DNA from: a virus
IMG/VR virus record: IMGVR_UViG_3300047550_003482
Coordinates: 26,420-90,419 of that record
Strand: one strand, 5' to 3'
DNA: 64,000 bases
Made by a program: the position numbers and the translations under genes. The notes beneath the pieces were generated by a model. It was not told the origin of the DNA, ran no database searches, and saw only the letters and a list, made by a program, of their open reading frames with translations. Of this stretch, positions 28,102 to 62,292 are shown piece after piece (the stretch's first letter is position 1; every line of letters begins with the position of its first letter).

Positions 28102-28120
28102 AGCTAGTAAATGCTATGAT

Positions 28121-28552: not shown

Positions 28553-28582
28553 TTTATTTCTCCTTTAAGCAAATATGACAGT

Positions 28583-28605: not shown

Positions 28606-28607
28606 TA

Positions 28608-28615
28608 ATATTTAT
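28608..28615 (-). promoter_or_regulatory. ATAAATAT late-promoter-like motif before hsp20
   Basis: ATAAATAT on the minus strand, immediately upstream of the leader palindrome of hsp20. Confidence 0.5.
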
Positions 28616-28650
28616 TGTACTAATTTACGCAAAAAAATAAACTATTTAGG

Positions 28651-36755: not shown

Positions 36756-36892
36756 ATGTTCTGTTTCATGGACTCTTGAATTTCCAAAACCCATTGATGT
36801 GGGACGCCAAACCGATCACTGATCATTTGTGGACTGAAACCCTGTTCCAATAGGTCTTGAATGTCAAGGATTAGATCACGCAGCTTGCTCAT
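36752..36892 (-). CDS. Small helix-turn-helix-like protein
   Basis: 46 residues from MSKLRDLILDIQDLLEQGFS. GFSPQMISDRFGVPHQWVLE has the helix-turn-helix rhythm of resolvase or ParB-type readers (Q-M-I-S-x-x-F-G-V-P). It overlaps the alarmone-hydrolase-like gene by 17 bases. Compare the 40-residue protein at 39718-39840 (GYTTREVALILDIPFQIVLK). Confidence 0.65.
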   Translation of the reverse strand: MSKLRDLILDIQDLLEQGFSPQMISDRFGVPHQWVLEIQESMKQNI

Positions 36893-37343
36893 TTGCAACT
36901 CCACTAAGACGACTTTGAATTTCAAGATAGAAAGTATGATACTTGGCCATACGTGCAATGTCCTTTTCAGTCACACCCTTAAGGCGCCTGATATCGGTGT
37001 TGTGCCTGAGGTCGGCACACTTGACCAACATAGCATCACGGCTGGCAAACACACCTTGCTTGTATTCTTCGTAGGTCTGACCCGGTTGCTTGGTCAATGC
37101 ACGGATGCCATTGATCACACGATCGGTCATGCCCGCATCACGAAGATCCTGATAGGTAACATCAGTATCTTCAACCACATCGTGACCCAGTGCAATGCAC
37201 ATAAGTTCTTCGTCAGTGGTCTTCAGGTAATGCATGACCTTCAAGGGATGCAAAATGTAGGGATTGCCACCGCGGTCAAACTGACCAGCATGTGCATTGG
37301 TCACCAGTACCAACATCTTGTCAAGCATTTGACCGCGCTTCAT
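36876..37343 (-). CDS. HD-domain hydrolase of the RelA/SpoT (small alarmone hydrolase) type
   Basis: 155 residues from MKRGQMLDKMLVLV. The order AHAGQFDRGGNPYILHPLKV (17-36), ALGHDVVEDTDVT (51-63) and KCADLRHNTD (108-117) matches the (p)ppGpp hydrolase domain of SpoT/MESH1: metal ligands His18 or His32, His54-Asp55 and Asp111, with catalytic E58-D59. There is no synthetase domain. It likely removes ppGpp, or NADPH as reported for MESH1, countering host starvation responses. Substrate not proven. Some RBS for the gene is AAAGGAATACT. Confidence 0.85.
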   Translation of the reverse strand: MKRGQMLDKMLVLVTNAHAGQFDRGGNPYILHPLKVMHYLKTTDEELMCIALGHDVVEDTDVTYQDLRDAGMTDRVINGIRALTKQPGQTYEEYKQGVFASRDAMLVKCADLRHNTDIRRLKGVTEKDIARMAKYHTFYLEIQSRLSGVANEQAA

Positions 37344-37353
37344 AGTATTCCTT

Positions 37354-37536
37354 TCAGGCAAATTCTTCATGGATTTCACGATCCATTTCTTGAGCGTCCA
37401 GCCAACGTTCATATTCAGCAGCATCCTCACGCTCACGCCGGCTGACAATGTTGAAGGCTTGAACAAGGCTGAAACCCTCGTTCAGCAGTTCGCCCATTTG
37501 AGTTTCAAATTCTTCTTGCGTGTAAAAGTTCATCAT
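37354..37536 (-). CDS. Small acidic hypothetical protein
   Basis: 60 residues from MMNFYTQEEFETQMGELLNE; GGAGTTTGAA precedes. Helical with FSLVQAFNIVSRREREDAAE and an Asp/Glu-rich tail. Directly upstream of the alarmone-hydrolase-like gene. Confidence 0.62.
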   Translation of the reverse strand: MMNFYTQEEFETQMGELLNEGFSLVQAFNIVSRREREDAAEYERWLDAQEMDREIHEEFA

Positions 37537-39905: not shown

Positions 39906-40154
39906 TTATTGTTGTGAATCACCAGCCTTAGGCACACTGTAGTCAACTACACAACCTGCCGGGATAGCACGGGTATGTGATATACCATGAGAATTCTTGA
40001 ATTGGATCAGGAGCATGCCGTTCTTGGCTTCGCCCTTGACCATACCAACACGACCCACATACTTGCGAACATAACGGTGCATTTTGCCGCTACGGCTCAT
40101 GAGGCTGACAACCCAAACGTATCGTCCTTGCCAAAGTGTTTCCTGATAGGTCAT
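39906..40154 (-). CDS. Small basic protein ending GDSQQ
   Basis: 82 residues: LWQGRYVWVVSLMSRSGKMH, YVRKYVGRVGMVKGEAKNGM, LLIQFKNSHGISHTRAIPAG. A beta-barrel (KOW/SH3-like) reading fits. The end shares DNA with the gene at 39388-39642. Confidence 0.65.
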   Translation of the reverse strand: MTYQETLWQGRYVWVVSLMSRSGKMHRYVRKYVGRVGMVKGEAKNGMLLIQFKNSHGISHTRAIPAGCVVDYSVPKAGDSQQ

Positions 40155-40159
40155 TTTGT

Positions 40160-40321
40160 TTACTCAATGCCCATAATAAGCATGGGAATATTACCAGACG
40201 GACCACGAAGTTCTACATCATTCAGAGGATGAGTAATATTTGGCAGAAAAGGATCATCAATCCGAACTTCTTCATCGGGGTCCAAAGTCTGAAGAATACG
40301 GATCAGTTCTTGAACTGTCAT
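40160..40321 (-). CDS. Small acidic protein of the MTVxxLIxLLQ type
   Basis: 53 residues: MTVQELIRILQTLDPDEEVR, then PFLPNITHPLNDVELRGPSG. Paralogue-like to the 45-residue protein at 16789-16926 in its first 19 residues. AAGGAGC precedes the start. Confidence 0.7.
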   Translation of the reverse strand: MTVQELIRILQTLDPDEEVRIDDPFLPNITHPLNDVELRGPSGNIPMLIMGIE

Positions 40322-40332
40322 TTCTTTGCTCC

Positions 40333-40515
40333 TTACTTCTCAATACGAACACAAACAGCCGGTATAGTGACGCCAATCAAGCGTTTATCATGGGCTGCTT
40401 TGTATATTAACTGTGAGGCACGTTCACACTTTTCCTGTGTAGAAAATTCCGGACCAGTCGTAAAAGTAGAACCATTTGCCAACATGACCATGATCCAAAC
40501 TACAGTATTCATCAT
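40333..40515 (-). CDS. Small exported or anchored protein
   Basis: 60 residues. Hydrophobic start (NTVVWIMVMLANG), then STQEKCERASQLIYKAAHDK and PAVCVRIEK. Two cysteines in the mature part, as in the paralogue at 6713-6892. Confidence 0.68.
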   Translation of the reverse strand: MMNTVVWIMVMLANGSTFTTGPEFSTQEKCERASQLIYKAAHDKRLIGVTIPAVCVRIEK

Positions 40516-40540
40516 TTACTCCTTATTGCCTATATGTGTA

Positions 40541-40789
40541 TTAGACGTTCAAATCAGCTTGGTGAGTGTACCGCACTTGAAAATTCCAAGCGTCCTTCTC
40601 GTGTTGAACCATTTGACCATGCTCTTCCCACTCATAGGTAACACCATAATCGGAAGTATGATCACTGGTTGCGCCGGGATACTTTCGGACGCTGACAATG
40701 GTGACCTTGATTTTACCTGAGCCAACCCAAACTTCGCCAACGTTGAAAGCAGGGCCAGTTGCCTTGTGAAACTTGATCTTGCCGTTCAT
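40541..40789 (-). CDS. Small hypothetical protein
   Basis: 82 residues: GPAFNVGEVWVGSGKIKVTI, VTYEWEEHGQMVQHEKDAWN. Beta-rich by eye. First gene behind the promoter at 40821-40849. Confidence 0.66.
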   Translation of the reverse strand: MNGKIKFHKATGPAFNVGEVWVGSGKIKVTIVSVRKYPGATSDHTSDYGVTYEWEEHGQMVQHEKDAWNFQVRYTHQADLNV

Positions 40790-40820
40790 TTCGTTTGCTC
40801 CTGTTTTCTAACTTGAATAC

Positions 40821-40849
40821 AGTATAGCACTAGCCCGATTTATTGTCAA
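40821..40849 (-). promoter_or_regulatory. Sigma-70-type early promoter
   Basis: TTGACA (40844-40849), 17 bp, TATACT (40821-40826), minus strand. Confidence 0.86.
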
Positions 40850-40851
40850 AT

Positions 40852-41082
40852 TTAGTAATCCGCTACCAATTTGCCATCACTGTTAACCCAAACATAAAGG
40901 CGTCCGTCGTGCATTTCATTATCAACTGGATATCGAAAATTGTAGGCAAATTGACCACCATTGGTGATACCTACAAATTCTGCCAGTAGAACACGATCCT
41001 TGGGATGATTTTTACGAATCAATGATTCAAGGGTGGTAGAGTCCAACCACGAACATTTACGAAGTGTTTCAACAGTAATCAT
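40852..41082 (-). CDS. Small hypothetical protein
   Basis: 76 residues from MITVETLRKCSWLDSTTLES. Later EFVGITNGGQFAYNFRYPVD and GRLYVWVNSDGKLVADY. The start is preceded by GGAGTTGAATGAA from the upstream gene end. Confidence 0.66.
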   Translation of the reverse strand: MITVETLRKCSWLDSTTLESLIRKNHPKDRVLLAEFVGITNGGQFAYNFRYPVDNEMHDGRLYVWVNSDGKLVADY

Positions 41083-41083
41083 T

Positions 41084-41290
41084 TCATTCAACTCCAATTA
41101 ATTCATCCTTGCAACCTAGTAGACTACGAACCGTATCGTTGGACAGCCACTTGGGATCTCCACCGCCCGTAGGTAATACCAATATCCTGTAATGTACATT
41201 CTTCATCGTAGACAGTACTACATGAGCGCGGCCGTCTATGCGAAAGACCTTGGGAATTTCTTCATCACTGATCAACGTGTTATTCATCAT
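41084..41290 (-). CDS. Small hypothetical protein with GVE end
   Basis: 68 residues: SDEEIPKVFRIDGRAHVVLS, MKNVHYRILVLPTGGGDPKW, ending ELIGVE. Not a NERI protein, yet its last codons also spell GGAGTTGAATGA, reused as ribosome site for the next gene. Confidence 0.66.
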   Translation of the reverse strand: MMNNTLISDEEIPKVFRIDGRAHVVLSTMKNVHYRILVLPTGGGDPKWLSNDTVRSLLGCKDELIGVE

Positions 41291-41493
41291 TCAACTCCGA
41301 AATGTTGTTTAAGCAAATTGGCTTGATCTATTGCCTTATATCCATGCGTAAAACGCCATGGACTGTTCTCTACGATGAGGGCGCACTCTTCTACAATCAA
41401 CTGGGCGAACTTTTTGAAAGTGGGATGAGGTTCAAAATCATCGCATTCGTAAATGCCGGCTTCGATCATAAGTTCCTTGATTCGTTCGTTCAT
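41287..41493 (-). CDS. NERI-family small phage protein
   Basis: 68 residues: NERIKELMIEAGIYE, core FKKFAQLIVEECALIV, tail LLKQHFGVE. Second NERI array, 41.3-42.6 kb. Confidence 0.85.
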   Translation of the reverse strand: MNERIKELMIEAGIYECDDFEPHPTFKKFAQLIVEECALIVENSPWRFTHGYKAIDQANLLKQHFGVE

Positions 41494-41735
41494 TCTCCAA
41501 CTCCGAAATCTCTTTTGATAGTTCGCTTACACTGTGCGGCACCTGAAGCGAATTCAGGCATATTGTGAAAATCACCTGCTCCCTGTACTGCACCACAGAT
41601 TAGCATACATTCCTTCACAACAGCCATGGCAAAGTTTTGCAGTGCTTGCTGGTCCATAATTGCACTTTTATCTCCATCGTTAAAATAGTCCCAAGCACCA
41701 GAAGTTTTTGCCAATTCGAAAATTCGTTGGTTCAT
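41490..41735 (-). CDS. NERI-family small phage protein
   Basis: 81 residues: NQRIFELAKTSGAWDY, core LQNFAMAVVKECMLIC, tail TIKRDFGVGE. Divergent in the core (AMAVVKEC). Confidence 0.82.
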   Translation of the reverse strand: MNQRIFELAKTSGAWDYFNDGDKSAIMDQQALQNFAMAVVKECMLICGAVQGAGDFHNMPEFASGAAQCKRTIKRDFGVGE

Positions 41736-41959
41736 CGCTCAACCCCGAAATGCTGCTTAATAACTCGACTGACTTCATAATCATCGTCGGAAGACAAACC
41801 AATTTTGTGTCTAAAATCAATACCGATACACTCCCGAACAATCAGTTCGGCGAACTTTTGATACCATTCCGCAGGAATATTCATACCTTCACTAAATGCT
41901 TCCTGATCCATTTCTTCAGTAGTCTGTTCAGCCAGTTCTTTAATAAATCGTTCGTTCAT
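41732..41959 (-). CDS. NERI-family small phage protein
   Basis: 75 residues from MNERFIKELAEQTTEE; a one-residue insertion breaks the NERI head. Core QKFAELIVRECIGID, tail VIKQHFGVER. Confidence 0.83.
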   Translation of the reverse strand: MNERFIKELAEQTTEEMDQEAFSEGMNIPAEWYQKFAELIVRECIGIDFRHKIGLSSDDDYEVSRVIKQHFGVER

Positions 41960-42180
41960 CACCGAATCTCCACGGGGTTGAGTTCAAACGTCATACCGTA
42001 GTCTTGATCTTTCCAAGTAACGAGAACATATGCTTCACGCACTGGTTCATACCGATATTCCAGACTCATGCCAGCGTAGTAGGGATCACTATTTTTCGCA
42101 CGGTTTTTCTTTTTCTCGGCCTCTTCTTTAGTCCAAAAAAGACCCTTACTTGTTTTGTAAACCTTTTTGATTTCCATCAT
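41959..42180 (-). CDS. Small hypothetical protein
   Basis: 73 residues. KVYKTSKGLFWTKEEAEKKK looks like a small strand-helix unit; SLEYRYEPVREAYVLVTWKD follows. Inserted between NERI genes with short overlaps. Confidence 0.66.
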   Translation of the reverse strand: MMEIKKVYKTSKGLFWTKEEAEKKKNRAKNSDPYYAGMSLEYRYEPVREAYVLVTWKDQDYGMTFELNPVEIR

Positions 42181-42380
42181 TCAACTCCAAAATGTTCTTT
42201 CAATCTATCACCTAACAAAGTTTCAATCGTTGCGGTTTCACTAACAAAGTTAGCACATTCCCGCACGATCAACTCGGCTAATTTTTCTGGGTTAAACTCC
42301 CTGATATCAAAAGAGTTTCCGCTGGAACCATAAAATTTCATCCCAGCTTGTTTGTAAAGTTCACGAATTCGTTCGTTCAC
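42177..42380 (-). CDS. NERI-family small phage protein
   Basis: 67 residues: NERIRELYKQAGMKFYG, core EKLAELIVRECANFV, tail RLKEHFGVE. Confidence 0.85.
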   Translation of the reverse strand: MNERIRELYKQAGMKFYGSSGNSFDIREFNPEKLAELIVRECANFVSETATIETLLGDRLKEHFGVE

Positions 42381-42628
42381 GATTCAACTCCGAAATGTTC
42401 TCTGATGGCCAGGTTGTTGCTCATAATTCCGTCAGAATATGCCGGGTTAGTTGATTTCAACATATCTGCGGAATTATAACTTACTCTCAGGCATTCCTGT
42501 ACAATCAACTCGGCGAACTTTTCCAAATCTGCCGGAGTAATTACCGCAGTGTCAATTCCCAAATGTTGCAGGTGTGCTTCAAATTTAATTTGAGCCTGCT
42601 TAGCCAGTTGAAAGATTCGTTCGTTCAT
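42377..42628 (-). CDS. NERI-family small phage protein
   Basis: 83 residues: NERIFQLAKQAQIKFE, core LEKFAELIVQECLRVS, tail AIREHFGVES. First gene behind the promoter at 42661-42689, which should drive the array to 40.85 kb. Confidence 0.85.
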   Translation of the reverse strand: MNERIFQLAKQAQIKFEAHLQHLGIDTAVITPADLEKFAELIVQECLRVSYNSADMLKSTNPAYSDGIMSNNLAIREHFGVES

Positions 42629-42660
42629 TTCAGACTCCCGTTATTGCTCACTAGAAATAC

Positions 42661-42689
42661 AGTATAGCACTAGCCCGATTTGTTGTCAA
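42661..42689 (-). promoter_or_regulatory. Sigma-70-type early promoter
   Basis: TTGACA (42684-42689), 17 bp, TATACT (42661-42666), minus strand. It directly abuts the nadV terminator, giving a sharply insulated unit boundary. Confidence 0.87.
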
Positions 42690-42690
42690 G

Positions 42691-42723
42691 TTAAAAAAAA
42701 TACGGGACCTAAGCCCCGTATTT
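42691..42723 (-). terminator. Rho-independent terminator of nadV
   Basis: Stem AAATACGGG (42698-42706) with CCCGTATTT (42715-42723), 8-base loop, followed on the minus strand by a run of eight T. It ends nadV transcription about 15 bases after the stop codon. Confidence 0.92.
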
Positions 42724-42738
42724 CAATCTTACATAAAG

Positions 42739-44109
42739 TTATGCCCTACTGTTTGCTCGGACTTGATCAAAGGTGTACTCAGTGATCAACTGTCCATTCT
42801 TGAACACAGTTTCTAGACAGTCCTCTGGCCAATCTTCAACGGCACTATGGTATTGACCATTGAAATTCTTGTACAGAGTAACTCTACCGGCCTTACTTAC
42901 TTTGCCCTTGTCAGTAATAGGATCCTTGTAAATAGGACGCCATTCTCCATTAATTTTTACAGCACTTGCCTTCATAGCAAACTTCTGAGTGTCACGATCA
43001 ACTTGTTGACAAAGTGCACCTCCCATTCCAAAGGTGATATTATCAGCACTATAACCCAATTCGGTCAGAGCGGCTAGTATATCATCAATAGATTGATAAT
43101 TTACGCCATCGCCTTGAATAATACGAACATGATTCAGAATCTTGTAGCCTTTGCTGTTAACTACGCTACCAAACTTACTATCTAAAATTTGGATCAATCT
43201 CTTGTTCACTTCAACTGGATCTCCGCTGTCAGGACGAATAACAACTGTAGCACCACTGTCAATGACCTGTTGGCGAAGTTCTTCACCCCAGAGTTTTTCT
43301 GCTGCGTTAAAGATGTCATAACTATCACTAACAACAGCGAGAATAGAGCCTGGACGAGCGAATTGAGCGAGCATATTCGCATATGCCTTTACCTCCCCGT
43401 CACGACCCCAACTCGTAATCGTAGAATGTTCGGCTGCGGGTATGGAAAAGCCAGCGACGCCTGCATTGTAAAACTCACGGGCATACAAAACACCAGTAAT
43501 AGTGTCAGTGCCCATGAAGTTAACCAAATGTGCTGCTGATCCAATACCAGATGTTTCTAAACTAGAAACTCCGCGGGCCGAAAAGTCATGAAGTTTAAAA
43601 TCAATAAGGCTAGGATCACCAGTACGCTCCAAATAGTTCAGAATAAGTTGACGAATAGTCCAACTCTGTGTTGCCACAGTAGTTGGATACCAAATAGCAC
43701 GTAGCAGAGCAGTTTCTAGCCAAGTTGTGAGCCAGAAACATTCTGGATCAGTGTTTTCAATTGTGGCAAGTACATTCTTAACCGGTACAACTGTTCCTTC
43801 TGGGACGGCTCGGATAACAACTGGGAGAAATCCACCGTGCTTATCCAGAATGTATTGCCATCCTTGGCGGTTAAAGGGCTCACCGTGTGCGGTAAGAATT
43901 TCTTCAGCAATTTCGATGTCTGCTTGAGTGATAGGCTCAAGCAGGTATTCCTTGATAAAAGCCTGTAGTCCGAAGAATACAGTTCTATCGTATCGACCCC
44001 CTCGACTTTCAATATACGAATAAACACCTGTAGTACCTAGTGGGTATTGCCATGCCATTGAACACTTGTAACTGTCCACATTCAAAATAATATTTTTTGC
44101 GAGTTTCAT
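42739..44109 (-). CDS. nadV: Nicotinamide phosphoribosyltransferase
   Basis: 456 residues. Family landmarks: FKLHDFSARGVSSLETSGIG (171-190), AHLVNFMGTDT, PAAEHSTITSWGRDGE with His228 (the residue phosphorylated in human NAMPT) and VVIRPDSGDPVE (289-300), which holds the PRPP-binding Arg and Asp. It converts nicotinamide and PRPP to NMN. With the NadM-Nudix protein 4 kb upstream this makes a complete two-step route to NAD, as described for phages that rebuild NAD after host NADase defences. It has its own terminator. Confidence 0.95.
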   Translation of the reverse strand: MKLAKNIILNVDSYKCSMAWQYPLGTTGVYSYIESRGGRYDRTVFFGLQAFIKEYLLEPITQADIEIAEEILTAHGEPFNRQGWQYILDKHGGFLPVVIRAVPEGTVVPVKNVLATIENTDPECFWLTTWLETALLRAIWYPTTVATQSWTIRQLILNYLERTGDPSLIDFKLHDFSARGVSSLETSGIGSAAHLVNFMGTDTITGVLYAREFYNAGVAGFSIPAAEHSTITSWGRDGEVKAYANMLAQFARPGSILAVVSDSYDIFNAAEKLWGEELRQQVIDSGATVVIRPDSGDPVEVNKRLIQILDSKFGSVVNSKGYKILNHVRIIQGDGVNYQSIDDILAALTELGYSADNITFGMGGALCQQVDRDTQKFAMKASAVKINGEWRPIYKDPITDKGKVSKAGRVTLYKNFNGQYHSAVEDWPEDCLETVFKNGQLITEYTFDQVRANSRA

Positions 44110-44181
44110 TTTAAGTTCCTTAAAAAGTTAAATTGCCCTAAGTCTATCTCAGGGACTTTTTTGTAGTTCTTGAGTTTATTT

Positions 44182-44189
44182 GATAAATA
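44182..44189 (+). promoter_or_regulatory. GATAAATA late-promoter-like motif
   Basis: GATAAATA followed by C, 26 bases before the plus-strand nuclease gene. It lies inside an imperfect inverted repeat (GTAGTTC at 44163-44169 and GAACTAC at 44193-44199). Confidence 0.45.
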
Positions 44190-44215
44190 CTTGAACTACA
44201 TAGAGAGATTATACA

Positions 44216-45148
44216 ATGACTCAGAGTAAAAATCAAGTATTTTTGGATAAAGCCAAGAAAATTCACGGCGACAAATTTGATTATTCCAAAGTTGAATGCC
44301 GCACCGCTAAGACCAAAGTTACCATTATCTGTAAGGAACATGGCGATTTTTTGGTCACTCCTAATAACCATCTGTATGGAAACGGGTGCCCAAAATGTCG
44401 TGGTAGAGGATTTACCGCTACTGAGCAACTTGAGAACTTTATCAAAGATGGTCATAGAATTCATAATAACAAATATGATTATTCACTTGTTAACATAACT
44501 GATGCAAAATTAACAATCATATGTCCTATTCATGGCAATTTTCAGCAACTTCGTCGGGCACATATCATCAATAAATCGGGGTGTCCTGAATGCGGTAGAC
44601 TTACTGCTAATTTCAAAACTACCTTGTCCAAAGATGAATTTGTCACTAAAGCCAACGAAACTCATAATAACAGATACACTTACGATAATGTAGTTTACCA
44701 AGGTGCTCATAAGAAGGTTAATGTCACTTGTCTCACTCACGGTGATTTTAATATCACACCGGCTAATCATTGGAGCAATGGAGTTGGCTGTCCATCCTGT
44801 TTCAACAGTAATCCCAGTAAAGGGGAAGTTAAGATTTACGATTGGCTTACTAAACATAACATTCATTTTGAGTTTCAGAAATCATTCCCTGACCTATATT
44901 ATAAATCCAAAAAAGGTCGCTTAAAATTCGATTTCTATATTCCCGAGAAAAACCTTTTAATAGAATTTGACGGTGAATATCATTATAACCCAATCTCCTT
45001 TTCTAAACTAATATCCAAAGAGGAACAATTATTACTGACACAAACAAGAGACCGACTCAAAACCGAATACGCTGAAAAGAATGGATACAAACTTTTACGC
45101 ATCAGATATGATGACGATATTTTGTCCATGTTAGAAACTGTCATTTGA
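44216..45148 (+). CDS. Zinc-ribbon repeats plus Vsr/DUF559-like endonuclease
   Basis: 310 residues on the plus strand. Three repeats of about 55-65 residues share F-D-Y-S-x-V (or Y), I-C-x-x-H-G-x-F and G-C-P-K-C patterns (ICKEHGDF, NGCPKCRGRG; ICPIHGNF, SGCPECGRL; CLTHGDFN, VGCPSCFN). A C-terminal nuclease domain follows: GEVKIYDWLTKHNIHFEFQK, LKFDFYIPEKNLLIEFDGEY and KNGYKLLRIRYDD, with Asp/Glu-x-Asp-Gly-Glu typical of very-short-patch and DUF559 nucleases. These are free-standing homing-type nucleases in phages. It sits divergently between nadV and the macro-domain operon. Confidence 0.85.
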   Translation: MTQSKNQVFLDKAKKIHGDKFDYSKVECRTAKTKVTIICKEHGDFLVTPNNHLYGNGCPKCRGRGFTATEQLENFIKDGHRIHNNKYDYSLVNITDAKLTIICPIHGNFQQLRRAHIINKSGCPECGRLTANFKTTLSKDEFVTKANETHNNRYTYDNVVYQGAHKKVNVTCLTHGDFNITPANHWSNGVGCPSCFNSNPSKGEVKIYDWLTKHNIHFEFQKSFPDLYYKSKKGRLKFDFYIPEKNLLIEFDGEYHYNPISFSKLISKEEQLLLTQTRDRLKTEYAEKNGYKLLRIRYDDDILSMLETVI

Positions 45149-45349
45149 CTCCTGAACTATCTTGGCAAATTCTTCAACGCTTTGACTCCACGTTGTCCAC
45201 CCGTCGTCAGTGAATCCTTCAAACTTACACATTTCAATGCCGTTTGATGTGAGCCACACTTCTGTGCCAGTATCTGAATAACCTTGAAAGATTCCCACAA
45301 CTTCACCGGACTGCGGATGTTTCAAGTTAAAACCTTCCTTATACATCAT
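45131..45349 (-). CDS. Small hypothetical protein
   Basis: 72 residues from an ATG preceded by GGAGG. FNLKHPQSGEVVGIFQGYSD, TGTEVWLTSNGIEMCKFEGF, DDGWTTWSQSVEEFAKI. It overlaps the 3' end of the convergent nuclease gene by 18 bases. Unknown. Confidence 0.65.
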   Translation of the reverse strand: MMYKEGFNLKHPQSGEVVGIFQGYSDTGTEVWLTSNGIEMCKFEGFTDDGWTTWSQSVEEFAKIVQESNDSF

Positions 45350-45350
45350 A

Positions 45351-45872
45351 TTAACCTCCAAATTCTACTAATGTTACTGTGCCGCTTTCTCGGGCAACTC
45401 TTTTGGCAAATACTTCGATCATGTCAACGATAGTTTCCTGCTCACCGCCGGCAAGTCCGCATCCAATGTAGGGTAGGCCGAACCGTTTGCCAGGATAGAC
45501 AAAAGCCAACTTTTCCAAAATCAATTGAAAGGCAATGTACTCAAACACATCAGTACCTTGACTCATATTGTACTGAGTGTAGGCATTGACGATCATGAAT
45601 TTGCCATTAGTGAATTCAGGATATACCACGGTATAGTTACCGAGTTTATTGTAATCACCCTTTTCAGTTTCATTATCAAAGAGAGCCGCTGCCGGATAAC
45701 GTTCACGAATTTCTCGGGCGATACCTCCACCCATGGTATTGAAACAATTACAACCATGAATGATAACATCAAACTCGCCTGCTTCCGCTAGGTCAAGTAG
45801 ATTACCTTTAGCATGTTTCAATGCTGGCTTTGGAAAATCGATGGGATTTTTCGTATTGGTATAGTGATTCAT
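45351..45872 (-). CDS. Macro-domain protein (ADP-ribose-1''-phosphatase type)
   Basis: 173 residues. HAKGNLLDLAEAGEFDVIIH and HGCNCFNTMGGGIAREIRER (39-58) form the ADP-ribose loop; FGLPYIGCGLAGGEQETIVD is the second loop. Macro domains of this type remove phosphate from ADP-ribose 1''-phosphate or remove ADP-ribose from targets. Next to NAD genes this suggests handling of NAD-derived products such as tRNA-splicing by-products or ADP-ribosylation. Confidence 0.88.
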   Translation of the reverse strand: MNHYTNTKNPIDFPKPALKHAKGNLLDLAEAGEFDVIIHGCNCFNTMGGGIAREIRERYPAAALFDNETEKGDYNKLGNYTVVYPEFTNGKFMIVNAYTQYNMSQGTDVFEYIAFQLILEKLAFVYPGKRFGLPYIGCGLAGGEQETIVDMIEVFAKRVARESGTVTLVEFGG

Positions 45873-46159
45873 TCTTCAACTCCGAAATGTTTCTTAATCT
45901 GCTTGGCATTTTTCTTTAGTAGGAACCCACCATATTGTTTGACTGCTTCTTCATAGCCTTCCATCCAATCAGTGGTCTTGTCGTGGCCTGTTGATTCTGT
46001 CATCCTGATTGTGCGTTGATTGTCACCGTTTGTTTCTAATACTTGAGCACATTCCCGAACAATCAATTCGGCGAACTTTTCCAAATCGCCTTCACCGTAG
46101 CCTAGTCGGTCAATTTTACAATCAGCCTGTTCAGCAAGTTCCTCAATTCGTTTGTTCAT
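45869..46159 (-). CDS. NERI-family small phage protein
   Basis: 96 residues, the longest simple member: NKRIEELAEQADCKIDRLG, core LEKFAELIVRECAQVL, a long charged insert, tail QIKKHFGVEE. Confidence 0.84.
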   Translation of the reverse strand: MNKRIEELAEQADCKIDRLGYGEGDLEKFAELIVRECAQVLETNGDNQRTIRMTESTGHDKTTDWMEGYEEAVKQYGGFLLKKNAKQIKKHFGVEE

Positions 46160-46374
46160 TGCTCAATAACCTCCACTCGATCTAACATATAATGTCGTTG
46201 CCAGCTGATATTACCATTATCCCACTCAATGTGAACAAAATAACCATCAATATCATCTTCTATATAGCGGGTGTCTCTATATGCTTCAGTCACTATGCCT
46301 TTGGCACCTGTACTACAGCTAATTACCTGCAAGCCTATTACCTTATCGTGCGGAACATCTGAAAGTTTGGTCAT
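46156..46374 (-). CDS. Small KOW-like hypothetical protein
   Basis: 72 residues: VIGLQVISCSTGAKGIVTEA, GYFVHIEWDNGNISWQRHYM. The strand pattern G-x-x-G-x-V...V-x-I-x-W-D-N-G resembles small barrel domains. Lies between two NERI genes. Confidence 0.64.
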   Translation of the reverse strand: MTKLSDVPHDKVIGLQVISCSTGAKGIVTEAYRDTRYIEDDIDGYFVHIEWDNGNISWQRHYMLDRVEVIEQ

Positions 46375-46553
46375 TCTTCAACTCCAAAATGTTTCAAAAC
46401 CATGTTGTACAGATTATCCTGCGGCATCAGTTCAGCACATTTCCGAACAATCAACTCGGCGAACTTTGCTGATTGTCTAGTAGGCATATCACAGCCGCAA
46501 CTACACATTTCTAAACCAGCCTGTAGGGCAAGTTCTTTAATTCGTTCGTTCAT
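46371..46553 (-). CDS. NERI-family small phage protein
   Basis: 60 residues: NERIKELALQAGLEMCS, with CSCGCD in the variable loop, core AKFAELIVRKCAELM, tail MVLKHFGVEE. The shortest intact member. Confidence 0.84.
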   Translation of the reverse strand: MNERIKELALQAGLEMCSCGCDMPTRQSAKFAELIVRKCAELMPQDNLYNMVLKHFGVEE

Positions 46554-46828
46554 TTTACATTCCTTATTTCTTCAACACATTCTTTGACTATTTCTTTAAT
46601 TTCATTTCGCCTATCTTGCTCTTTTTTGATATATTCCGAAATCCCTAGTGATATTCTTTGTTTAAGAAAATATTCTGCGGAATCTTTCCAATTATATTCT
46701 AAAGAAGTTAAAAAATAAATATGCAACATCTCTGATTCAGAAGAACCTTCGCAAATATAAAATCTGCTAGCGTTTGCTTTTACAATAGATACCTTTTCTT
46801 CAAGTGTTTTTTTCCTAAACCATACCAT
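46550..46828 (-). CDS. Helical hypothetical protein
   Basis: 92 residues with a basic start (VWFRKKTLEEKVSIVKANAS) and a C-terminal amphipathic helix (KKEQDRRNEIKEIVKECVEE). AAAGGAAATATAT precedes the ATG. No family recognised. Confidence 0.6.
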   Translation of the reverse strand: MVWFRKKTLEEKVSIVKANASRFYICEGSSESEMLHIYFLTSLEYNWKDSAEYFLKQRISLGISEYIKKEQDRRNEIKEIVKECVEEIRNVK

Positions 46829-46870
46829 ATATATTTCCTTTATTAAAATATTTTTAGCTATTGATATTAA

Positions 46871-47086
46871 TTACTTGATCGTACCTTGTTTGATCATGGT
46901 TTCAAACTGATCAAACAGTTGCTCAAACTTGACCTGATAGATGGTTTCCAATCCTAACAGATAGTTTGATACCTGATCTGTGGTCATGTTACCCTTATCT
47001 ACATATTGCTTATTGAGTGCCCTGATATCATCAATCACACTCCAGCAGTTCATGATCTGTTGTTCAAAATCAAAACGATCACTCAT
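46871..47086 (-). CDS. Small helical hypothetical protein
   Basis: 71 residues: SDRFDFEQQIMNCWSVIDDI, TDQVSNYLLGLETIYQVKFE. I recall a similar phage protein next to NAD genes in T4-like genomes, without function. Overlaps upstream gene by ATGA. Confidence 0.7.
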   Translation of the reverse strand: MSDRFDFEQQIMNCWSVIDDIRALNKQYVDKGNMTTDQVSNYLLGLETIYQVKFEQLFDQFETMIKQGTIK

Positions 47087-47436
47087 AGTTTCACACCTAG
47101 TACCTTTCGTTCTTCATCACTGAGTTTTGCCAGAGCAGCTTCTCGTACCTGCTTAAGACGTTCTTGTTCTCTATGCATAGCATCAAGTTTACGATGATTT
47201 TTATGCCACTTGATTAACTCAGATTTGGTAATACCTGCTTCCTTGTAGTTGATCCAATCATAGAAGTCTCCCTTCTTAGGACTTACAGTTTCTACTAGAC
47301 TGTCAACATGCTCCAATGCTACCAATGCTTGACATAGGGCACTTTCAGCAAAAGCAATTTGCTTCTTGAGGGCAGGTTCAGTTACATCCTTAAAATATTG
47401 ATGAGGATGATCGTCATAAAAATCTCTACATGGCAT
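47083..47436 (-). CDS. Conserved phage protein, zinc-like start
   Basis: 117 residues. MPCRDFYDDHPHQYF opens it, then a long helical stretch (FAESALCQALVALEHVDSLV), WINYKEAGITKSELIKWHKN, and LSDEERKVLGVKL. Familiar in phages and some bacteria; function unknown. One-base gap to the NadM-Nudix gene. Confidence 0.74.
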   Translation of the reverse strand: MPCRDFYDDHPHQYFKDVTEPALKKQIAFAESALCQALVALEHVDSLVETVSPKKGDFYDWINYKEAGITKSELIKWHKNHRKLDAMHREQERLKQVREAALAKLSDEERKVLGVKL

Positions 47437-47437
47437 T

Positions 47438-48466
47438 TTAAGCTCCTACAAAATGTTGAATAATTTCCCAATGATCTTCAAAACATTCGTCTGACTTAAC
47501 ATCTACTAGTGGCACCCAACGGGCACGATCAGCATCATCTTGTCCCTTAACCTTAGGCAGTTCACCATCAGGCAATACGATCTTGAAGGCATGCGTGATT
47601 GTCCTGCCCCTAGCACTACGTTCAACCGCATCAAATACTTTAACATCTTTGATACTTCCTGTCAAGACTGGAGCAGGAACTTTGATACCAGTTTCTTCAC
47701 GCAATTCACGAATGGCAGCATCACGGACACTACGGTCACTAGCAGCATTCAAGAATCCACCAGGCAATGCCCACAATCCCTTACCAGGTTCACTACGACG
47801 GCGAATCATCAATACGTGACCACTCTGAATCACTACTGAATCCACAGTAACGAATACTGGAGGATAGGGCAGACTTTCATATTGCTTACGATAATTCGCA
47901 ATGAATTCACGTTCACGGACAACCTGCTCATATGCCTGTGTTTCCTTGAAACTATTGAGAAACTGCATTGTGGATTGCGGAACTACTCCACGTAGGAAGT
48001 TTAGATTAGCATCACGACGGAAATAAATGTCGCGGATATCAGTAGCGTTCAGTGGCTCAATCAGTTCTACATCCACACGCTCCCATTGTGGGAACATCTT
48101 GAGATAGAAAGTGGTTTCGTCCTTATCGTGTCCAATGATACCATCCCTGGCACCAATAATACGATACTTGCTGTGGATAGCTTGTACACGGGTAGCCCAA
48201 GCCTGATCGTTGTAAATGGTGTCGATGTTGTGGTCAATATGAATTGAACATGTAGGATCACCTACACCACGCAAAGCACCAATCAACATGGACTCACGTT
48301 CTTTGCTGGTAAACGGATTCTTGTAGGTACGTGGTTGATCCGCACTACCTACGATAATTACAACTTGACGAGCCAATTCAGTGGCACGACGAATAGTTTC
48401 AATATGTGCAGTATGCACTGGTTGAAACCTGCCAATATATACTAGTGTACCGTACTTCTTAGACAT
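47438..48466 (-). CDS. nadM: Bifunctional NMN adenylyltransferase / Nudix hydrolase
   Basis: 342 residues. Domain 1 (about 1-185) has GRFQPVHTAHIETIRRA (12-28), the HxGH-like nucleotidyltransferase motif in its NadM form (H-T-A-H), and ATDIRDIYFR near its end. Domain 2 has LWALPGGFLN (231-240) and IRELREETGI (252-261), the core of the Nudix box; the upstream Glu of the usual box is not visible. NadM makes NAD from NMN and ATP; the Nudix half may hydrolyse ADP-ribose or its derivatives. Partner of nadV. Confidence 0.95.
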   Translation of the reverse strand: MSKKYGTLVYIGRFQPVHTAHIETIRRATELARQVVIIVGSADQPRTYKNPFTSKERESMLIGALRGVGDPTCSIHIDHNIDTIYNDQAWATRVQAIHSKYRIIGARDGIIGHDKDETTFYLKMFPQWERVDVELIEPLNATDIRDIYFRRDANLNFLRGVVPQSTMQFLNSFKETQAYEQVVREREFIANYRKQYESLPYPPVFVTVDSVVIQSGHVLMIRRRSEPGKGLWALPGGFLNAASDRSVRDAAIRELREETGIKVPAPVLTGSIKDVKVFDAVERSARGRTITHAFKIVLPDGELPKVKGQDDADRARWVPLVDVKSDECFEDHWEIIQHFVGA

Positions 48467-48489
48467 ACAAAACTCCTTTGTATTGTTTG

Positions 48490-48516
48490 ATTATGTGAAG
48501 TCTATCTTCACGTAAT
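48490..48516 (-). promoter_or_regulatory. Leader hairpin of nadM
   Basis: ATTATGTGAAG (48490-48500) and CTTCACGTAAT (48506-48516): 11-bp stem with one mismatch (a G-U pair in RNA on the minus strand) and a 5-base loop. It begins just downstream of ATAAATAC and ends 23 bases before the ATG, with AAAGGAG between. Confidence 0.6.
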
Positions 48517-48525
48517 GTATTTATC
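48517..48525 (-). promoter_or_regulatory. GATAAATAC late-promoter-like motif before nadM
   Basis: GATAAATAC on the minus strand directly followed by the leader hairpin. Same order as at hsp20 (28583-28615). Confidence 0.5.
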
Positions 48526-48530
48526 ACCTA

Positions 48531-48791
48531 TTACAGTGAATTCAAAAATTCTTTCAATTCATTATAACTCTTACATACCTGACGACCATAACGGCTGGTA
48601 CGCAGGATCATAAAATTTCTGTTGTAGATTTCCACTGTTGCGTCCAGTGTGCGGGCACGGCCAAATGTCACCGACAGATATTTGGTACCGCGGTTATTGA
48701 CATGTGAGCCAGTAAGAACACCGTAGGGCGCAGTAAAATTCTGCGACTTGGCCCACTGTTCAATATCCATCTGAATTTGCTGACTATTCAT
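48531..48791 (-). CDS. Small conserved phage protein
   Basis: 86 residues: QMDIEQWAKSQNFTAPYGVL, TKYLSVTFGRARTLDATVEI, YNRNFMILRTSRYGRQVCKS. The T-F-G-R-A-R-T-L-D-A pattern is familiar from phages. Behind the promoter at 48817-48845. Confidence 0.72.
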   Translation of the reverse strand: MNSQQIQMDIEQWAKSQNFTAPYGVLTGSHVNNRGTKYLSVTFGRARTLDATVEIYNRNFMILRTSRYGRQVCKSYNELKEFLNSL

Positions 48792-48816
48792 ACTAGACCT
48801 CTACTACAATGTCAGT

Positions 48817-48845
48817 AGTATACTGGTTTTATTATTTATTGTCAA
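48817..48845 (-). promoter_or_regulatory. Sigma-70-type early promoter
   Basis: TTGACA (48840-48845), 17 bp, TATACT (48817-48822), minus strand. Confidence 0.82.
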
Positions 48846-48846
48846 C

Positions 48847-49110
48847 TTATCGTTCCAAAAGTGTCATTAGATTTTTATGGCTCATAACCTCATGTACAGG
48901 TTTTGCTGACACTTCAGCTACTTCATATTCAACAATTTCCCAATCACCTAAATTTTCGTTATAATAATTACTATTAATTACATTAGTAATCATTGCACGA
49001 AGTTTACCTAACGTATCCCAAATTTTGCCTGTCTTATTCCAACTAGGACGAGACCCTGCCAAACGATAAAGACTTGGATTACTACGTTTTCTGATTTTGT
49101 AGAATTTCAT
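48847..49110 (-). CDS. Small basic hypothetical protein
   Basis: 87 residues from MKFYKIRKRSNPSLYRLAGS. GKIWDTLGKLRAMITNVINS, then GDWEIVEYEVAEV. The opening resembles a small strand-rich fold found in T4-like phages. Upstream extension in frame is rejected because it overlaps the deaminase gene. Confidence 0.66.
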   Translation of the reverse strand: MKFYKIRKRSNPSLYRLAGSRPSWNKTGKIWDTLGKLRAMITNVINSNYYNENLGDWEIVEYEVAEVSAKPVHEVMSHKNLMTLLER

Positions 49111-49114
49111 AGTT

Positions 49115-49429
49115 TTAAGTATGTTCAATAACTTTGATTCCAGTAGCACGAATAGCACTCATACAGATAGGGCAAGGGGCCGCCAGTGTAGGATTGCCAT
49201 CACGATCAAACCTGCTAACAAAAATACGATGTGCCCGTTTGATATCGGAACAACGAACGATAGCATGGATTTCTGCATGAAGAAATTGTTTGTAGGGCTC
49301 ACCCATTTTTTCAGCATGTTTAGCTTGAATCGGGTGAGTTTTGATATACGAGTTTTGACCAATGCTCAAAACACGACCGCGACGATCATAAATCACCGCG
49401 GTTATATTTTGCCTCTGACTTTTAGACAT
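49115..49429 (-). CDS. Cytidine/deoxycytidylate deaminase-family protein
   Basis: 104 residues. Zinc site: LHAEIHA with His51 and Glu53, and APCPICM with Cys86 and Cys89. It begins ITAVIYDRRGRVLSIGQNSY. Shorter than the dCMP deaminase at 3.2-3.7 kb and without its insert. Substrate may be a nucleoside, nucleotide or nucleic acid base; not decided by sequence. Confidence 0.85.
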   Translation of the reverse strand: MSKSQRQNITAVIYDRRGRVLSIGQNSYIKTHPIQAKHAEKMGEPYKQFLHAEIHAIVRCSDIKRAHRIFVSRFDRDGNPTLAAPCPICMSAIRATGIKVIEHT

Positions 49430-49456
49430 ATCTAAAAACTTGTTTAAGATATGCTT

Positions 49457-49484
49457 ATTTTATAGTGTTTCTAGTTTTTGTCAA
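49457..49484 (-). promoter_or_regulatory. Candidate sigma-70-type promoter
   Basis: TTGACA (49479-49484), 16 bp, TAAAAT (49457-49462), minus strand, upstream of the deaminase-like gene. Confidence 0.62.
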
Positions 49485-49485
49485 A

Positions 49486-49767
49486 TTACTTTTTTGTCTT
49501 AGCGACATTACCGAAATTGACGAAATCATACATTTTTTGTGCAGTATCAAGGACTTGTTCTAGGCCTGGAAATGATGGCATATCTACCTTAGTAACGATT
49601 TGTCCTGTTTTGGAATCACGCTCGGCAGTGACTTCCCAGCCTTGCCACTTTGCATGAAATTCATTAGTTACCATATCCTTGGCCATACCAAGAATTTCCG
49701 TGCGAATTTCATATCCAGATTTAGATGATTTAAATTCTGGCATTTTTGGTATAAAATTTTCATTCAT
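49486..49767 (-). CDS. Conserved T4-like phage protein
   Basis: 93 residues: GYEIRTEILGMAKDMVTNEF, then KVDMPSFPGLEQVLDTAQKM. Ribosome site AAAGGAGAAAATT. The leader (CACACAAAGGAGAAAATTAT) is shared with the gene at 50085. Probably helical; phasin-like in look, unassigned. Confidence 0.7.
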   Translation of the reverse strand: MNENFIPKMPEFKSSKSGYEIRTEILGMAKDMVTNEFHAKWQGWEVTAERDSKTGQIVTKVDMPSFPGLEQVLDTAQKMYDFVNFGNVAKTKK

Positions 49768-49797
49768 AATTTTCTCCTTTGTGTGTGTATGTCTATA

Positions 49798-50085
49798 TTA
49801 GGATTTTTTGATAGCACTTTGCTGCATCCAGGCATCCCAACCTGCTCTTACCCAATCAATACTGAATGGGTTAAAGATTTTTTCTACTTTAGTTTCCATA
49901 ACTTCACGGCCCATAGTAGTCATCACTGTGGTGCTGGTTTTAATAGAAACATGTAAAAATTCTGTTTGACTGTCTACATACTGTGTCCACGCTCTAGCAA
50001 GATCGGGATTAGTAATGTATTTGTTGATGAATTGCTTTTTGCCGTTCTGTACGGAATCAACCATTAATTCTGGAATATTAAGCAT
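49798..50085 (-). CDS. Conserved T4-like phage protein
   Basis: 95 residues from MLNIPELMVDSVQNGKKQFI. ITNPDLARAWTQYVDSQTEF, TKVEKIFNPFSIDWVRAGWD. Helical with Phe/Trp. Same leader as the gene downstream. Function unknown. Confidence 0.7.
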   Translation of the reverse strand: MLNIPELMVDSVQNGKKQFINKYITNPDLARAWTQYVDSQTEFLHVSIKTSTTVMTTMGREVMETKVEKIFNPFSIDWVRAGWDAWMQQSAIKKS

Positions 50086-59418: not shown

Positions 59419-59660
59419 TGCTTGAGCTTCCAAATTAAAAATTCTTCTTCGCCAATATAGTAAATATCTGAGTTTCCTATTTGTTTGATATATCTTGATC
59501 CTTTATAGCAATGTTTAAACCACAATATTTTACCTGTCAAGTCACACCTTCTTGGAATAATACAATAATGTAGTTTCCAATGTTCAACCAGTTTTAGATA
59601 CGGTTGAAGGTAATCAATATAGTCTAATGCTATAGGATCAAGCACTTTTATGTACCCCAT
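59415..59660 (-). CDS. Small conserved phage protein
   Basis: 81 residues: LDPIALDYIDYLQPYLKLVE, HYCIIPRRCDLTGKILWFKH, and DIYYIGEEEFLIWKLKQ. Its start lies 13 bases inside queE. I recall it from T4-like phages; function unknown. Confidence 0.7.
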   Translation of the reverse strand: MGYIKVLDPIALDYIDYLQPYLKLVEHWKLHYCIIPRRCDLTGKILWFKHCYKGSRYIKQIGNSDIYYIGEEEFLIWKLKQ

Positions 59661-60499
59661 GCGTTCCGGAATAGAGGAATTTGAAGTCTATCACTATAAC
59701 GCAATCCGCATTTCATTGCAAATTCTGCTACACGTTTGTTGTTTAGATGATACACACTTTCAACACCGCCCACTGGCATCAAATAGACATTACCCTTGAA
59801 ACCATGCTTTTTGTAAACATCAACTGTATCTAGACATTCTTCTAAATCATCTTCGGTTGCGATTACAAACTTCAAGTAAGTATGACCAATTGATTCGTAT
59901 TGACAAACAACACTTGGTTTAATGGCATCAGACCTTAGTTCACCACTATTACTGAGTTTTGGGCTCACACTGAATGTTAGGCAATTATATCCACGTTGCT
60001 CAATACCCCAATGATAAAGATAATCTTTAAACTCATTAGTTAAAGGTTGTGTACCATTTGTTTCAAAGGTTAGTTCTTTTAATGATTTCATTTTTGAATC
60101 ATCTAATAGCTCAGGAAACGCTCGTTGCCAACCAAGTAATGGTTCACCACCAGTGATAACTAAGTGTTCTTCTCTCCATTCTTTGTAGGGTAAGAGGTCG
60201 GTGATTTTTTCAATGATAGTTTCTGTTGTAAAAACTGGTGAAAGGTCCTTGAACCTAGGATCCCAACTAGCATAAGAATCGCAGCCGGTATTAACAAGTG
60301 GTAAATCTCTATATTGCTTAAACTCTGTAATACGACTTGCAACCATGTCTCTTTCATTAGATTTTTCTCCTTTATTCATTCCAAAACCACTACAGGTAAA
60401 GTTACAACCAAATGTTCGTAGGAAGATACTAGGAACTCCCATATATCGGCCCTCACCTTGAATACTGTAAAATATTTCACTTACTTTTATTTGACGCAT
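59648..60499 (-). CDS. queE: 7-carboxy-7-deazaguanine synthase QueE
   Basis: 283 residues. VSEIFYSIQGEGRYMGVPSI is the QueE opening, LVITGGEPLLGWQ the radical-SAM GGE motif, LTFETNGTQPL follows. The cluster motif reads CNFTCSGF: Cys32 and Cys36 are present but the third position is Phe39; Cys73 in TGCDSYASWD may supply the ligand. It converts 6-carboxytetrahydropterin to carboxydeazaguanine, and works with FolE and QueD nearby. QueC is not in this window. Confidence 0.92.
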   Translation of the reverse strand: MRQIKVSEIFYSIQGEGRYMGVPSIFLRTFGCNFTCSGFGMNKGEKSNERDMVASRITEFKQYRDLPLVNTGCDSYASWDPRFKDLSPVFTTETIIEKITDLLPYKEWREEHLVITGGEPLLGWQRAFPELLDDSKMKSLKELTFETNGTQPLTNEFKDYLYHWGIEQRGYNCLTFSVSPKLSNSGELRSDAIKPSVVCQYESIGHTYLKFVIATEDDLEECLDTVDVYKKHGFKGNVYLMPVGGVESVYHLNNKRVAEFAMKCGLRYSDRLQIPLFRNAWGT

Positions 60500-60507
60500 T
60501 TTTAATC

Positions 60508-61143
60508 CTATTCATACATTACTGTTGTGCTATCACCCAAAGACCATTTTGGATTAGTCTCAACTACATATTTCTTTGTGCAAACCTTGAAATCTGGAAA
60601 TTTCATTACTTTTGGATTGCTAGCAGCATCTAAAAATATACAACGATTATTAGGTTGTGCCGCATATTGCCCATTCTCTAATTCAATAAAATTGAAACTT
60701 TTATGATCTTCTGGATACTCTGCATAACTAGTATCAATTATATTAGTATCAGGGGCACAATTGTCAATTGTAAACAAATAATTGCCCTGATGAAACTTTT
60801 TGTCCTTCGCATAGAATCTACAACTTAGATTTCTTAGAAAGACTTTTTGTATCACAGTAAAATCATAACTAAAACAATCCCAAATTTGCAATGTATCCAA
60901 ACTCAAGAAAGAATCTTTGTCTAGGTCTGTATCTCTACTGACAAAAGCATTCAATGGTAACTTGTCATATAATGCTCCATAATTGGGTAAGTATGCTTCA
61001 ATACGAAAAGCCTGACTTCTTATGCTTTTGACACTTACCCAAATACAAGGTTCATATTCATTGTGACCTTGAGTAAAATCATATAAAAATTCTTTGCGTA
61101 TAAAGCAATGAATTGGTGGTAAATTAGCTACTAAATGTGCCAT
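60508..61143 (-). CDS. Conserved phage protein in the 7-deazaguanine cluster
   Basis: 211 residues, beta-rich: CFIRKEFLYDFTQGHNEYEP, CIWVSVKSIRSQAFRIEAYL and NYLFTIDNCAPDTNIIDTSY. No enzyme motif seen. Overlaps queD by one base, so co-transcribed with FolE, QueD, QueE. I recall similar proteins in T4-like phages. Confidence 0.72.
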   Translation of the reverse strand: MAHLVANLPPIHCFIRKEFLYDFTQGHNEYEPCIWVSVKSIRSQAFRIEAYLPNYGALYDKLPLNAFVSRDTDLDKDSFLSLDTLQIWDCFSYDFTVIQKVFLRNLSCRFYAKDKKFHQGNYLFTIDNCAPDTNIIDTSYAEYPEDHKSFNFIELENGQYAAQPNNRCIFLDAASNPKVMKFPDFKVCTKKYVVETNPKWSLGDSTTVMYE

Positions 61144-61643
61144 TAAAATAAATCCTCATTCCAATGACGATGACCTTCACGCCATGCCATGTTGTATTTT
61201 GTTTCACGAACCTCTACGCGAAAACACCAAATTCGTTCAGCCTCACCTTTACCTAAATAATCAGGGATATATACCCCATTCATAAATCTGTAAAGTTGGT
61301 CAGCAATTAGTTCACATCCCATTGCTGGCAGAATCGTCAAATCCAATACATTACGTTTTGCCAAATCTTTATAGATTTCTAAGTCTGGATCATCTTCGGC
61401 AATCAACGTTTTGTGATCAAATTGATCTTTTAGTATTTGCTTAAGTTCTTTGAACCCACCATAATCACAAACCCAGCCACGCTTGTCAAGTTCATTTGCA
61501 CCGAAATAAAACTTGAAACTAAAGCTGTAGCCATGATTTTTATTACAATGGGTATCTGCCTTCCATTGCTTGTATGCTACTGGAAATTCATCTATATATT
61601 CTTTTGTGCTTACGTATTTGTAGACACATGGAGTATAAATCAT
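61143..61643 (-). CDS. queD: 6-carboxytetrahydropterin synthase QueD-like
   Basis: 166 residues. THCNKNHGYSFSFKFYF gives Cys33 and His37 of the active and zinc site; the usual second His of HGH is Tyr39. VCDYGGFKELKQILKDQFDH (58-77) holds the conserved D-Y/F-G-x-L-K block and Asp-His pair. HGY variants are known to me from phage and some bacterial QueD proteins. It makes 6-carboxytetrahydropterin from dihydroneopterin triphosphate made by FolE. Confidence 0.85.
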   Translation of the reverse strand: MIYTPCVYKYVSTKEYIDEFPVAYKQWKADTHCNKNHGYSFSFKFYFGANELDKRGWVCDYGGFKELKQILKDQFDHKTLIAEDDPDLEIYKDLAKRNVLDLTILPAMGCELIADQLYRFMNGVYIPDYLGKGEAERIWCFRVEVRETKYNMAWREGHRHWNEDLF

Positions 61644-62110: not shown

Positions 62111-62291
62111 CGTCCCGAGGCCTAGATGGAGGTGTGTTATATTCTTCTGCGATTACAATAACATTTACTAAAAATGTTGCTATTGCTATTACTGCAAATG
62201 TTCCCAATAAAAACCAGGCTACTCCTGTTTCTATTAGAACCAAGAAAAATAAGATGGCGAACCATCCTACAATATATTTTACGATAAACAT
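62097..62291 (-). CDS. Small two-helix membrane protein
   Basis: 64 residues. Hydrophobic stretch FIVKYIVGWFAILFFLVLIE and a second (FLLGTFAVIAIATFLVNVIV), then an acidic tail (PPSRPRDDDFQ). Overlaps the cytidylyltransferase gene by 14 bases. Function unknown. Confidence 0.68.
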   Translation of the reverse strand: MFIVKYIVGWFAILFFLVLIETGVAWFLLGTFAVIAIATFLVNVIVIAEEYNTPPSRPRDDDFQ

Positions 62292-62292
62292 T

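What the first reader, a model, noticed from the sequence alone, without database searches (positions are those of the whole stretch)
42739..48466. Two-step NAD salvage with a macro-domain protein
NadV turns nicotinamide into NMN, NadM-Nudix makes NAD, and a macro-domain enzyme lies between them. This equals the nicotinamide-to-NAD route reported for phages that restore NAD after NADase-type defence. The macro protein and Nudix domain could clear ADP-ribose products from the same defences.
Basis: partly seen in the sequence, partly recalled or inferred. Interest (0 to 1): 0.75.

Follow-up and report, generated by a model that had tools for sequence, protein, structure and literature searches.

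The report
Phage NAD-rebuilding operon with macro-domain partner
A virus of bacteria carries a known two-enzyme kit for rebuilding the cell's NAD, and a third, ADP-ribose-handling gene turns out to travel with that kit in many uncultivated phages, which suggests it works alongside the kit, although what it does has not been tested.

Summary
NadV (nicotinamide phosphoribosyltransferase), a macro-domain protein and NadM-Nudix are encoded in one direction, with small genes and an opposite-strand homing-endonuclease-like gene between them. NadV plus NadM is the two-enzyme route now called NARP2, so that part is known; NadV has the Nampt motif, not the Namat (NARP1) motif. What is added here: the macro gene is not an accidental neighbour. 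In 32 of 51 non-redundant NadM loci from uncultivated phages a relative lies within 6 kb on the same strand, usually as nadM-macro-nadV. It occurs in several gene orders, and its presence changes at least 11 times on the NadV tree. Related macro genes also adjoin NARP1 operons in Pseudomonas phages. In the closest named phage the same slot holds a NADAR gene. A phage promoter and a terminator bracket the window's cassette. Best reading: NARP2 plus an accessory enzyme that handles an ADP-ribose derivative. Substrate, anti-NADase effect and product flow are untested. A 2025 paper already proposed the idea for one NARP1 phage, and a 2026 preprint showed it for a different enzyme (RyDEP).

The parts
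48817..48845 (-). promoter-like site TTGACA-N17-TATACT in front of the cassette
   Evidence: 23 such sites (up to 1 mismatch) in the window against 0.67 expected, all on the minus strand; activity not tested
48531..48791 (-). small ORF (86 aa) between the promoter-like site and nadM
   Evidence: ORF list only
47438..48466 (-). nadM: NMN adenylyltransferase fused to a Nudix domain (342 aa)
   Evidence: Pfam, phrog_395 6e-79, 2qjo 8e-82, conserved HxxH, Arg145 and Nudix residues
45869..47436 (-). about six small ORFs between nadM and macro, two of them of the repeated FAELIVRECA small-protein family
   Evidence: ORF list; one has phrog_5370 1.7e-6
45351..45872 (-). macro-domain protein (173 aa), Poa1p/Tk.4-like
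   Evidence: phrog_335 2e-39, Poa1p 2e-7, AF2 and Foldseek, 56-sequence alignment
44216..45148 (+). homing-endonuclease-like gene, probably an inserted selfish element
   Evidence: phrog_559 9e-67; relatives sit just upstream of nadV, antisense, in nine loci, absent in L018
42739..44109 (-). nadV: nicotinamide phosphoribosyltransferase (Nampt, 456 aa)
   Evidence: Pfam, phrog_448, 7yqo, Nampt-type motif GGALCQQVDRD
42697..42724 (-). terminator-like hairpin just after nadV
   Evidence: 12-pair stem with T tail; four found in the region against 3.9 expected, so weak alone, but well placed
42661..42689 (-). next copy of the promoter-like site, starting the following unit

Best explanation
The locus is a phage NARP2 operon with an accessory enzyme that handles an ADP-ribose derivative. 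NadV joins nicotinamide to PRPP to give NMN, and the NadM domain adenylates NMN to NAD+ (inferred from family and conserved residues). The Nudix domain likely splits ADP-ribose into AMP and ribose-5-phosphate, as reported for its solved relatives (recalled knowledge). The macro protein likely hydrolyses or sequesters an ADP-ribose derivative made by a host defence (inferred). Together they would restore NAD+ after a NAD-consuming defence and dispose of its products. Shown here: gene content, family membership, recurrence of the macro partner, promoter/terminator bracket. Inferred: substrates, product flow and any effect on defence.
For: Families and structures. Nampt rather than Namat motif. 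Macro within 6 kb in 32 of 51 non-redundant NadM loci, 26 as nadM-macro-nadV, cassette genes co-directional; macro in 34 of 46 loci against 19 for the commonest other flanking family; at least 11 changes of macro presence on the NadV tree; single copy, close to nadM in 11 of 13 whole records. Same kind of macro next to NARP1 genes in Pseudomonas phages PA10 and M5.1. NADAR in the slot in phage B23. One transcription unit by promoter and terminator placement. Precedents: RyDEP in a NARP1 operon, macro proposed as NARP1 partner in phage Adele.
Against: No activity was measured. Many NARP2 loci lack macro (16 of 51 NadM loci; 11 whole records), so it is not required for the pathway. The same macro family (Tk.4) is common in phages with no NAD genes beside it. 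The Poa1p His23 position is Gln in most cassette relatives.
Confidence: 0.6

Rival explanations
1. Plain NARP2 with an unrelated neighbour: the macro gene serves something else and only shares an early-gene region with nadM and nadV.
For: Macro genes of this family are widespread in phages away from NAD genes; named NARP2 phages such as ACP17, LucasX and BUCT-ZZ01 lack it beside the pair; fetched loci are related to one another.
Against: Flanking genes vary far more than macro, several gene orders exist, at least 11 changes on the tree, and the same pairing occurs with NARP1 in other phages.
Confidence: 0.17
2. RNA repair: macro removes ADP-ribose-1''-phosphate left by 2'-phosphate clean-up (KptA route), and NadV/NadM replace the NAD+ that this consumes.
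For: Poa1p is the closest fold; the window has an RNA ligase gene (8831-9748); related macro genes lie near RNA ligase or kinase genes in other phages.
Against: No KptA above its cut-off in 22 virus records including this one; the window's record is a fragment and a host KptA is possible.
Confidence: 0.12
3. Auxiliary metabolism only: the phage raises NAD+ to feed its own replication, with no role in counter-defence.
For: Phage NAD salvage genes have been read as auxiliary metabolic genes (PMC11097641); nothing here tests defence.
Against: NARP1 and NARP2 are reported to counter NAD-depleting defences (Osterman 2024, not held here; known through citing papers); macro and NADAR partners are hard to explain by bulk NAD supply.
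Confidence: 0.11

Closest known systems
NARP2 (phage Nampt + Nmnat; Osterman et al. 2024, known here through citing papers)
   Same: Nampt and NMN adenylyltransferase genes of one phage operon
   Different: A macro gene lies between them, and nadM carries a Nudix domain (the fusion itself is known in phages)
NARP1 with a downstream Poa1p-like macro gene (phage Adele, PMC12846349; PA10 and M5.1 here)
   Same: NAD-rebuilding operon adjoined by a macro protein of the same kind
   Different: NARP1 uses Adps and Namat; the window has Nampt and NadM
RyDEP in the NARP1 operon of phage DyoEdafos (PMC13232231)
   Same: A signal-degrading enzyme gene set inside an NAD-rebuilding operon
   Different: RyDEP is a RyR-domain glycosidase, not a macro domain, and its activity was measured
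NADAR beside NadM/NadV in phages (PMC9503650; B23 here)
   Same: NAD salvage genes beside an ADP-ribose-processing gene
   Different: NADAR is an unrelated fold. In the passages read, NADAR rather than macro is named in this setting; the gene-neighbourhood figure could not be seen
Poa1p (yeast) and phage Tk.4 macro proteins
   Same: Closest fold and sequence matches
   Different: Poa1p His23 is matched in the window but is Gln in most cassette relatives; Ser30 is Thr

Membership tests
NARP2 | Nampt gene (not Namat) with its catalytic residues | tested here: met
   Families; motif GGALCQQVDRD against GSYTYQCNTRD and GSFTYQCNTRD of NARP1 phages; His228 and RPDSG invariant
NARP2 | NMN adenylyltransferase gene in the same operon | tested here: met
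   nadM-Nudix 3.3 kb upstream on the same strand; co-directional in relatives
NARP2 | Restores NAD+ and counters NAD-depleting defence | not testable with these tools
   Needs enzyme assays and phage challenge
NARP1 | Namat motif GSxxxxxxTRD | tested here: not met
NARP1 | Adps (PRPP-synthetase-like) gene beside it | tested here: not met
   No such family among the ten genes of the cassette that were scanned; not searched genome-wide
Poa1p/Tk.4 macro proteins | Fold and sequence similarity | tested here: met
   phrog_335, Poa1p by sequence and fold
Poa1p/Tk.4 macro proteins | Poa1p active-site residues His23, Asn26, Ser30 | tested here: inconclusive
   Window has His39, Asn42, Thr46; the His position is Gln in 28 of 37 cassette relatives
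DarG antitoxin | NCBIfam DarG equivalog cut-off | tested here: not met
   27.4 bits against a cut-off of 250
KptA-linked RNA repair | KptA gene in the phage | tested here: not met
   No match above cut-off in 22 records; the window's record is a fragment

The most novel reading that the evidence does not exclude
NARP2 operons of uncultivated phages have an exchangeable slot for ADP-ribose-derivative enzymes (macro, NADAR, nucleoside-deoxyribosyltransferase-like). The slot enzyme turns a host immune signal or ADP-ribose adduct into ADP-ribose, the Nudix domain cuts this to ribose-5-phosphate and AMP, and ribose-5-phosphate returns through PRPP to NadV, so that products of the defence are recycled into NAD+.
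Probability: 0.25. Interest if true: 0.72.

Novelty: new variant of a known kind. Interest (0 to 1): 0.45.

Why it matters
If the macro protein removes a defence-made ADP-ribose signal or adduct, these phages pair repair of NAD+ with disposal of the trigger in one operon, and the macro's substrate could point to a host defence molecule. The set of related cassettes with and without macro makes this directly testable.

Tried and rejected
NARP1 membership: rejected on the Namat motif. DarG antitoxin: rejected by score. Phage-encoded KptA route: no KptA above cut-off. Naming the macro a Poa1p-type phosphatase: not supported, since the His23 position varies. From memory, the TARG1/DarG catalytic Lys and TARG1 Asp seem replaced by Gln100 and Ala141; no superposition was made, so this was not relied on. 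Rfam scan of 40000-50000: nothing. A blastn of the macro-nadV gap against L018 aligned only the nadV side, so no exact insertion point was mapped. A scan of cellular genomes for the macro gave one distant hit.

Full report
What is there. On the minus strand the window encodes nadM-Nudix (47438-48466), a macro-domain protein (45351-45872) and nadV (42739-44109). Family, PHROG and PDB sequence matches are strong for nadM and nadV. The macro has no Pfam hit but matches phrog_335 and Poa1p; its AF2 model (mean pLDDT 82.6) is closest to Poa1p, then TARG1 and DarG. The window is part of a 90.4 kb virus record. Small ORFs lie between nadM and macro, and an opposite-strand homing-endonuclease-like gene lies between macro and nadV.

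Which pathway. The diagnostic Namat motif (PMC12774641) is absent: the window reads GGALCQQVDRD, while two NARP1 phages read GSYTYQCNTRD and GSFTYQCNTRD. In relatives His228, RPDSG and the RD pair of NadV are invariant, as are the two His of HxxH, Arg145 and the Nudix REL-EE residues of NadM; the usual HxGH glycine is alanine in most of this lineage. So NadV is a Nampt and the pair is NARP2 by gene content.

Is macro a real partner? Loci were fetched by NadM, which does not select for macro. After 90% deduplication, 32 of 51 have a macro gene within 6 kb, 26 of them as nadM-macro-nadV, and the cassette genes found are co-directional. The macro-nadV gap is most often about 70 bp. If every genome had one macro placed at random, 5 to 14.5% would be expected and the binomial tail is below 1e-14, but the loci are related, so this is only indicative. 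Two checks bear on relatedness. The commonest flanking family outside the cassette is in 19 of 46 loci, against 34 for macro (that set was chosen to show arrangements). On a quick NadV tree macro presence changes 22 times, at least 11 on well-supported branches (the set includes loci fetched by macro). In whole records macro is single-copy and within about 3 kb of nadM in 11 of 13; 11 other records with nadM have none (records were chosen partly for arrangement).

Variants of the slot. The closest named phage, Synechococcus phage B23, has a NADAR gene between nadM and nadV (PF08719, 2.6e-48), and its macro lies about 22 kb beyond nadV. G023 (locus L055) has macro, NADAR, nadM and nadV together. 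Thirty-one fetched loci, not deduplicated, carry a PF15891 gene next to nadV. Pseudomonas phages PA10 and M5.1 have a PRPP-synthetase-like gene, a Namat, a macro and a DprA-like gene in order. A joined macro plus NadV query found 177 named-phage records that cover at least 80% of it in one place; among the 60 rows listed, those covering both were Pseudomonas phages with identity near 34%, and none of the rows with a closer NadV covered macro. Unlisted rows were not inspected.

Expression. TTGACA-N17-TATACT occurs 23 times (up to one mismatch) against 0.67 expected, all on the minus strand. One copy precedes the cassette (48845-48817), the next follows nadV (42689-42661), and a terminator-like hairpin lies between nadV and that copy (42724-42697). 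None lies inside the cassette. This suggests one transcription unit; that it is early is inferred from the sigma-70-like sequence.

The endonuclease. Related genes sit just upstream of nadV, antisense to it, in nine fetched loci, some of them near-identical; L018 lacks it. It is best read as an inserted selfish element; the insertion point was not mapped.

What it does. The best-supported account is NARP2 with an accessory that handles an ADP-ribose derivative. Precedents are RyDEP, shown to degrade cADPR signals and feed NARP1 (PMC13232231), and the proposal that a Poa1p-like macro next to NARP1 in phage Adele frees ADP-ribose (PMC12846349). The macro's chemistry is open: window His39, Asn42 and Thr46 match Poa1p His23, Asn26 and Ser30, but the His position is Gln in 28 of 37 cassette relatives. 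The invariance of residues 40-47 is partly ascertainment, since GCNCFNTM was a search seed. A KptA-based RNA-repair role is less likely for lack of a phage KptA, but the window's record is a fragment and a host enzyme is possible.

Novelty. The pair is known. An ADP-ribose enzyme in an NAD-rebuilding operon is published for NARP1, and NADAR beside NadM/NadV was noted in 2022 (PMC9503650). What appears new, within the papers that could be read, is the recurrent macro partner of NARP2 in uncultivated phages and the exchangeable slot. The gene-neighbourhood figure of PMC9503650 could not be seen and the NARP2 paper itself was not held, so prior mention cannot be excluded.

Noticed in passing
41084-42628 and 45869-46553 (-): Array of paralogous small proteins (MNERIKEL...FAELIVRECA...HFGVE); 44 copies in 18 of 46 sources around the cassette. 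Function unknown.
   Followed up: partly
window, minus strand, 6676-61822: Phage-wide promoter-like consensus TTGACA-N17-TATACT, 23 sites against 0.67 expected, all on one strand.
   Followed up: partly
27695-30077 (-): ClpS, Hsp20 and ClpX-like genes side by side in a phage.
   Followed up: partly
59648-63009 (-): Radical-SAM (QueE-like by eye), PTPS/QueD-like and GTP cyclohydrolase I genes, possibly a 7-deazaguanine pathway.
   Followed up: no
36876-37466 (-): HD-type phosphohydrolase (phrog_990), possibly alarmone hydrolase; a similar gene (by eye) lies upstream of the cassette in other loci.
   Followed up: no
8831-9748 (-): T4 RNA ligase 1-type gene.
   Followed up: no
7984-8834 (-): Two neighbouring ORFs rich in AWSAAWSAARDAA repeats.
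   Followed up: no
L182:11484-12593 and similar loci: A gene of the AAA ATPase type (Pfam hit on the family member L041:13224-14276) lies downstream of nadV in most fetched loci (84 of 87 in the cluster), but not in the window.
   Followed up: no
L064:8798-9754: A gene with a radical-SAM-like CxxxCxxC stretch lies inside the cassette in 17 fetched loci (9 distinct sequences); its PHROG matches are weak.
   Followed up: no
L092:13260-13766: PF15891 nucleoside 2-deoxyribosyltransferase-like gene next to nadV in 31 fetched loci.
   Followed up: partly
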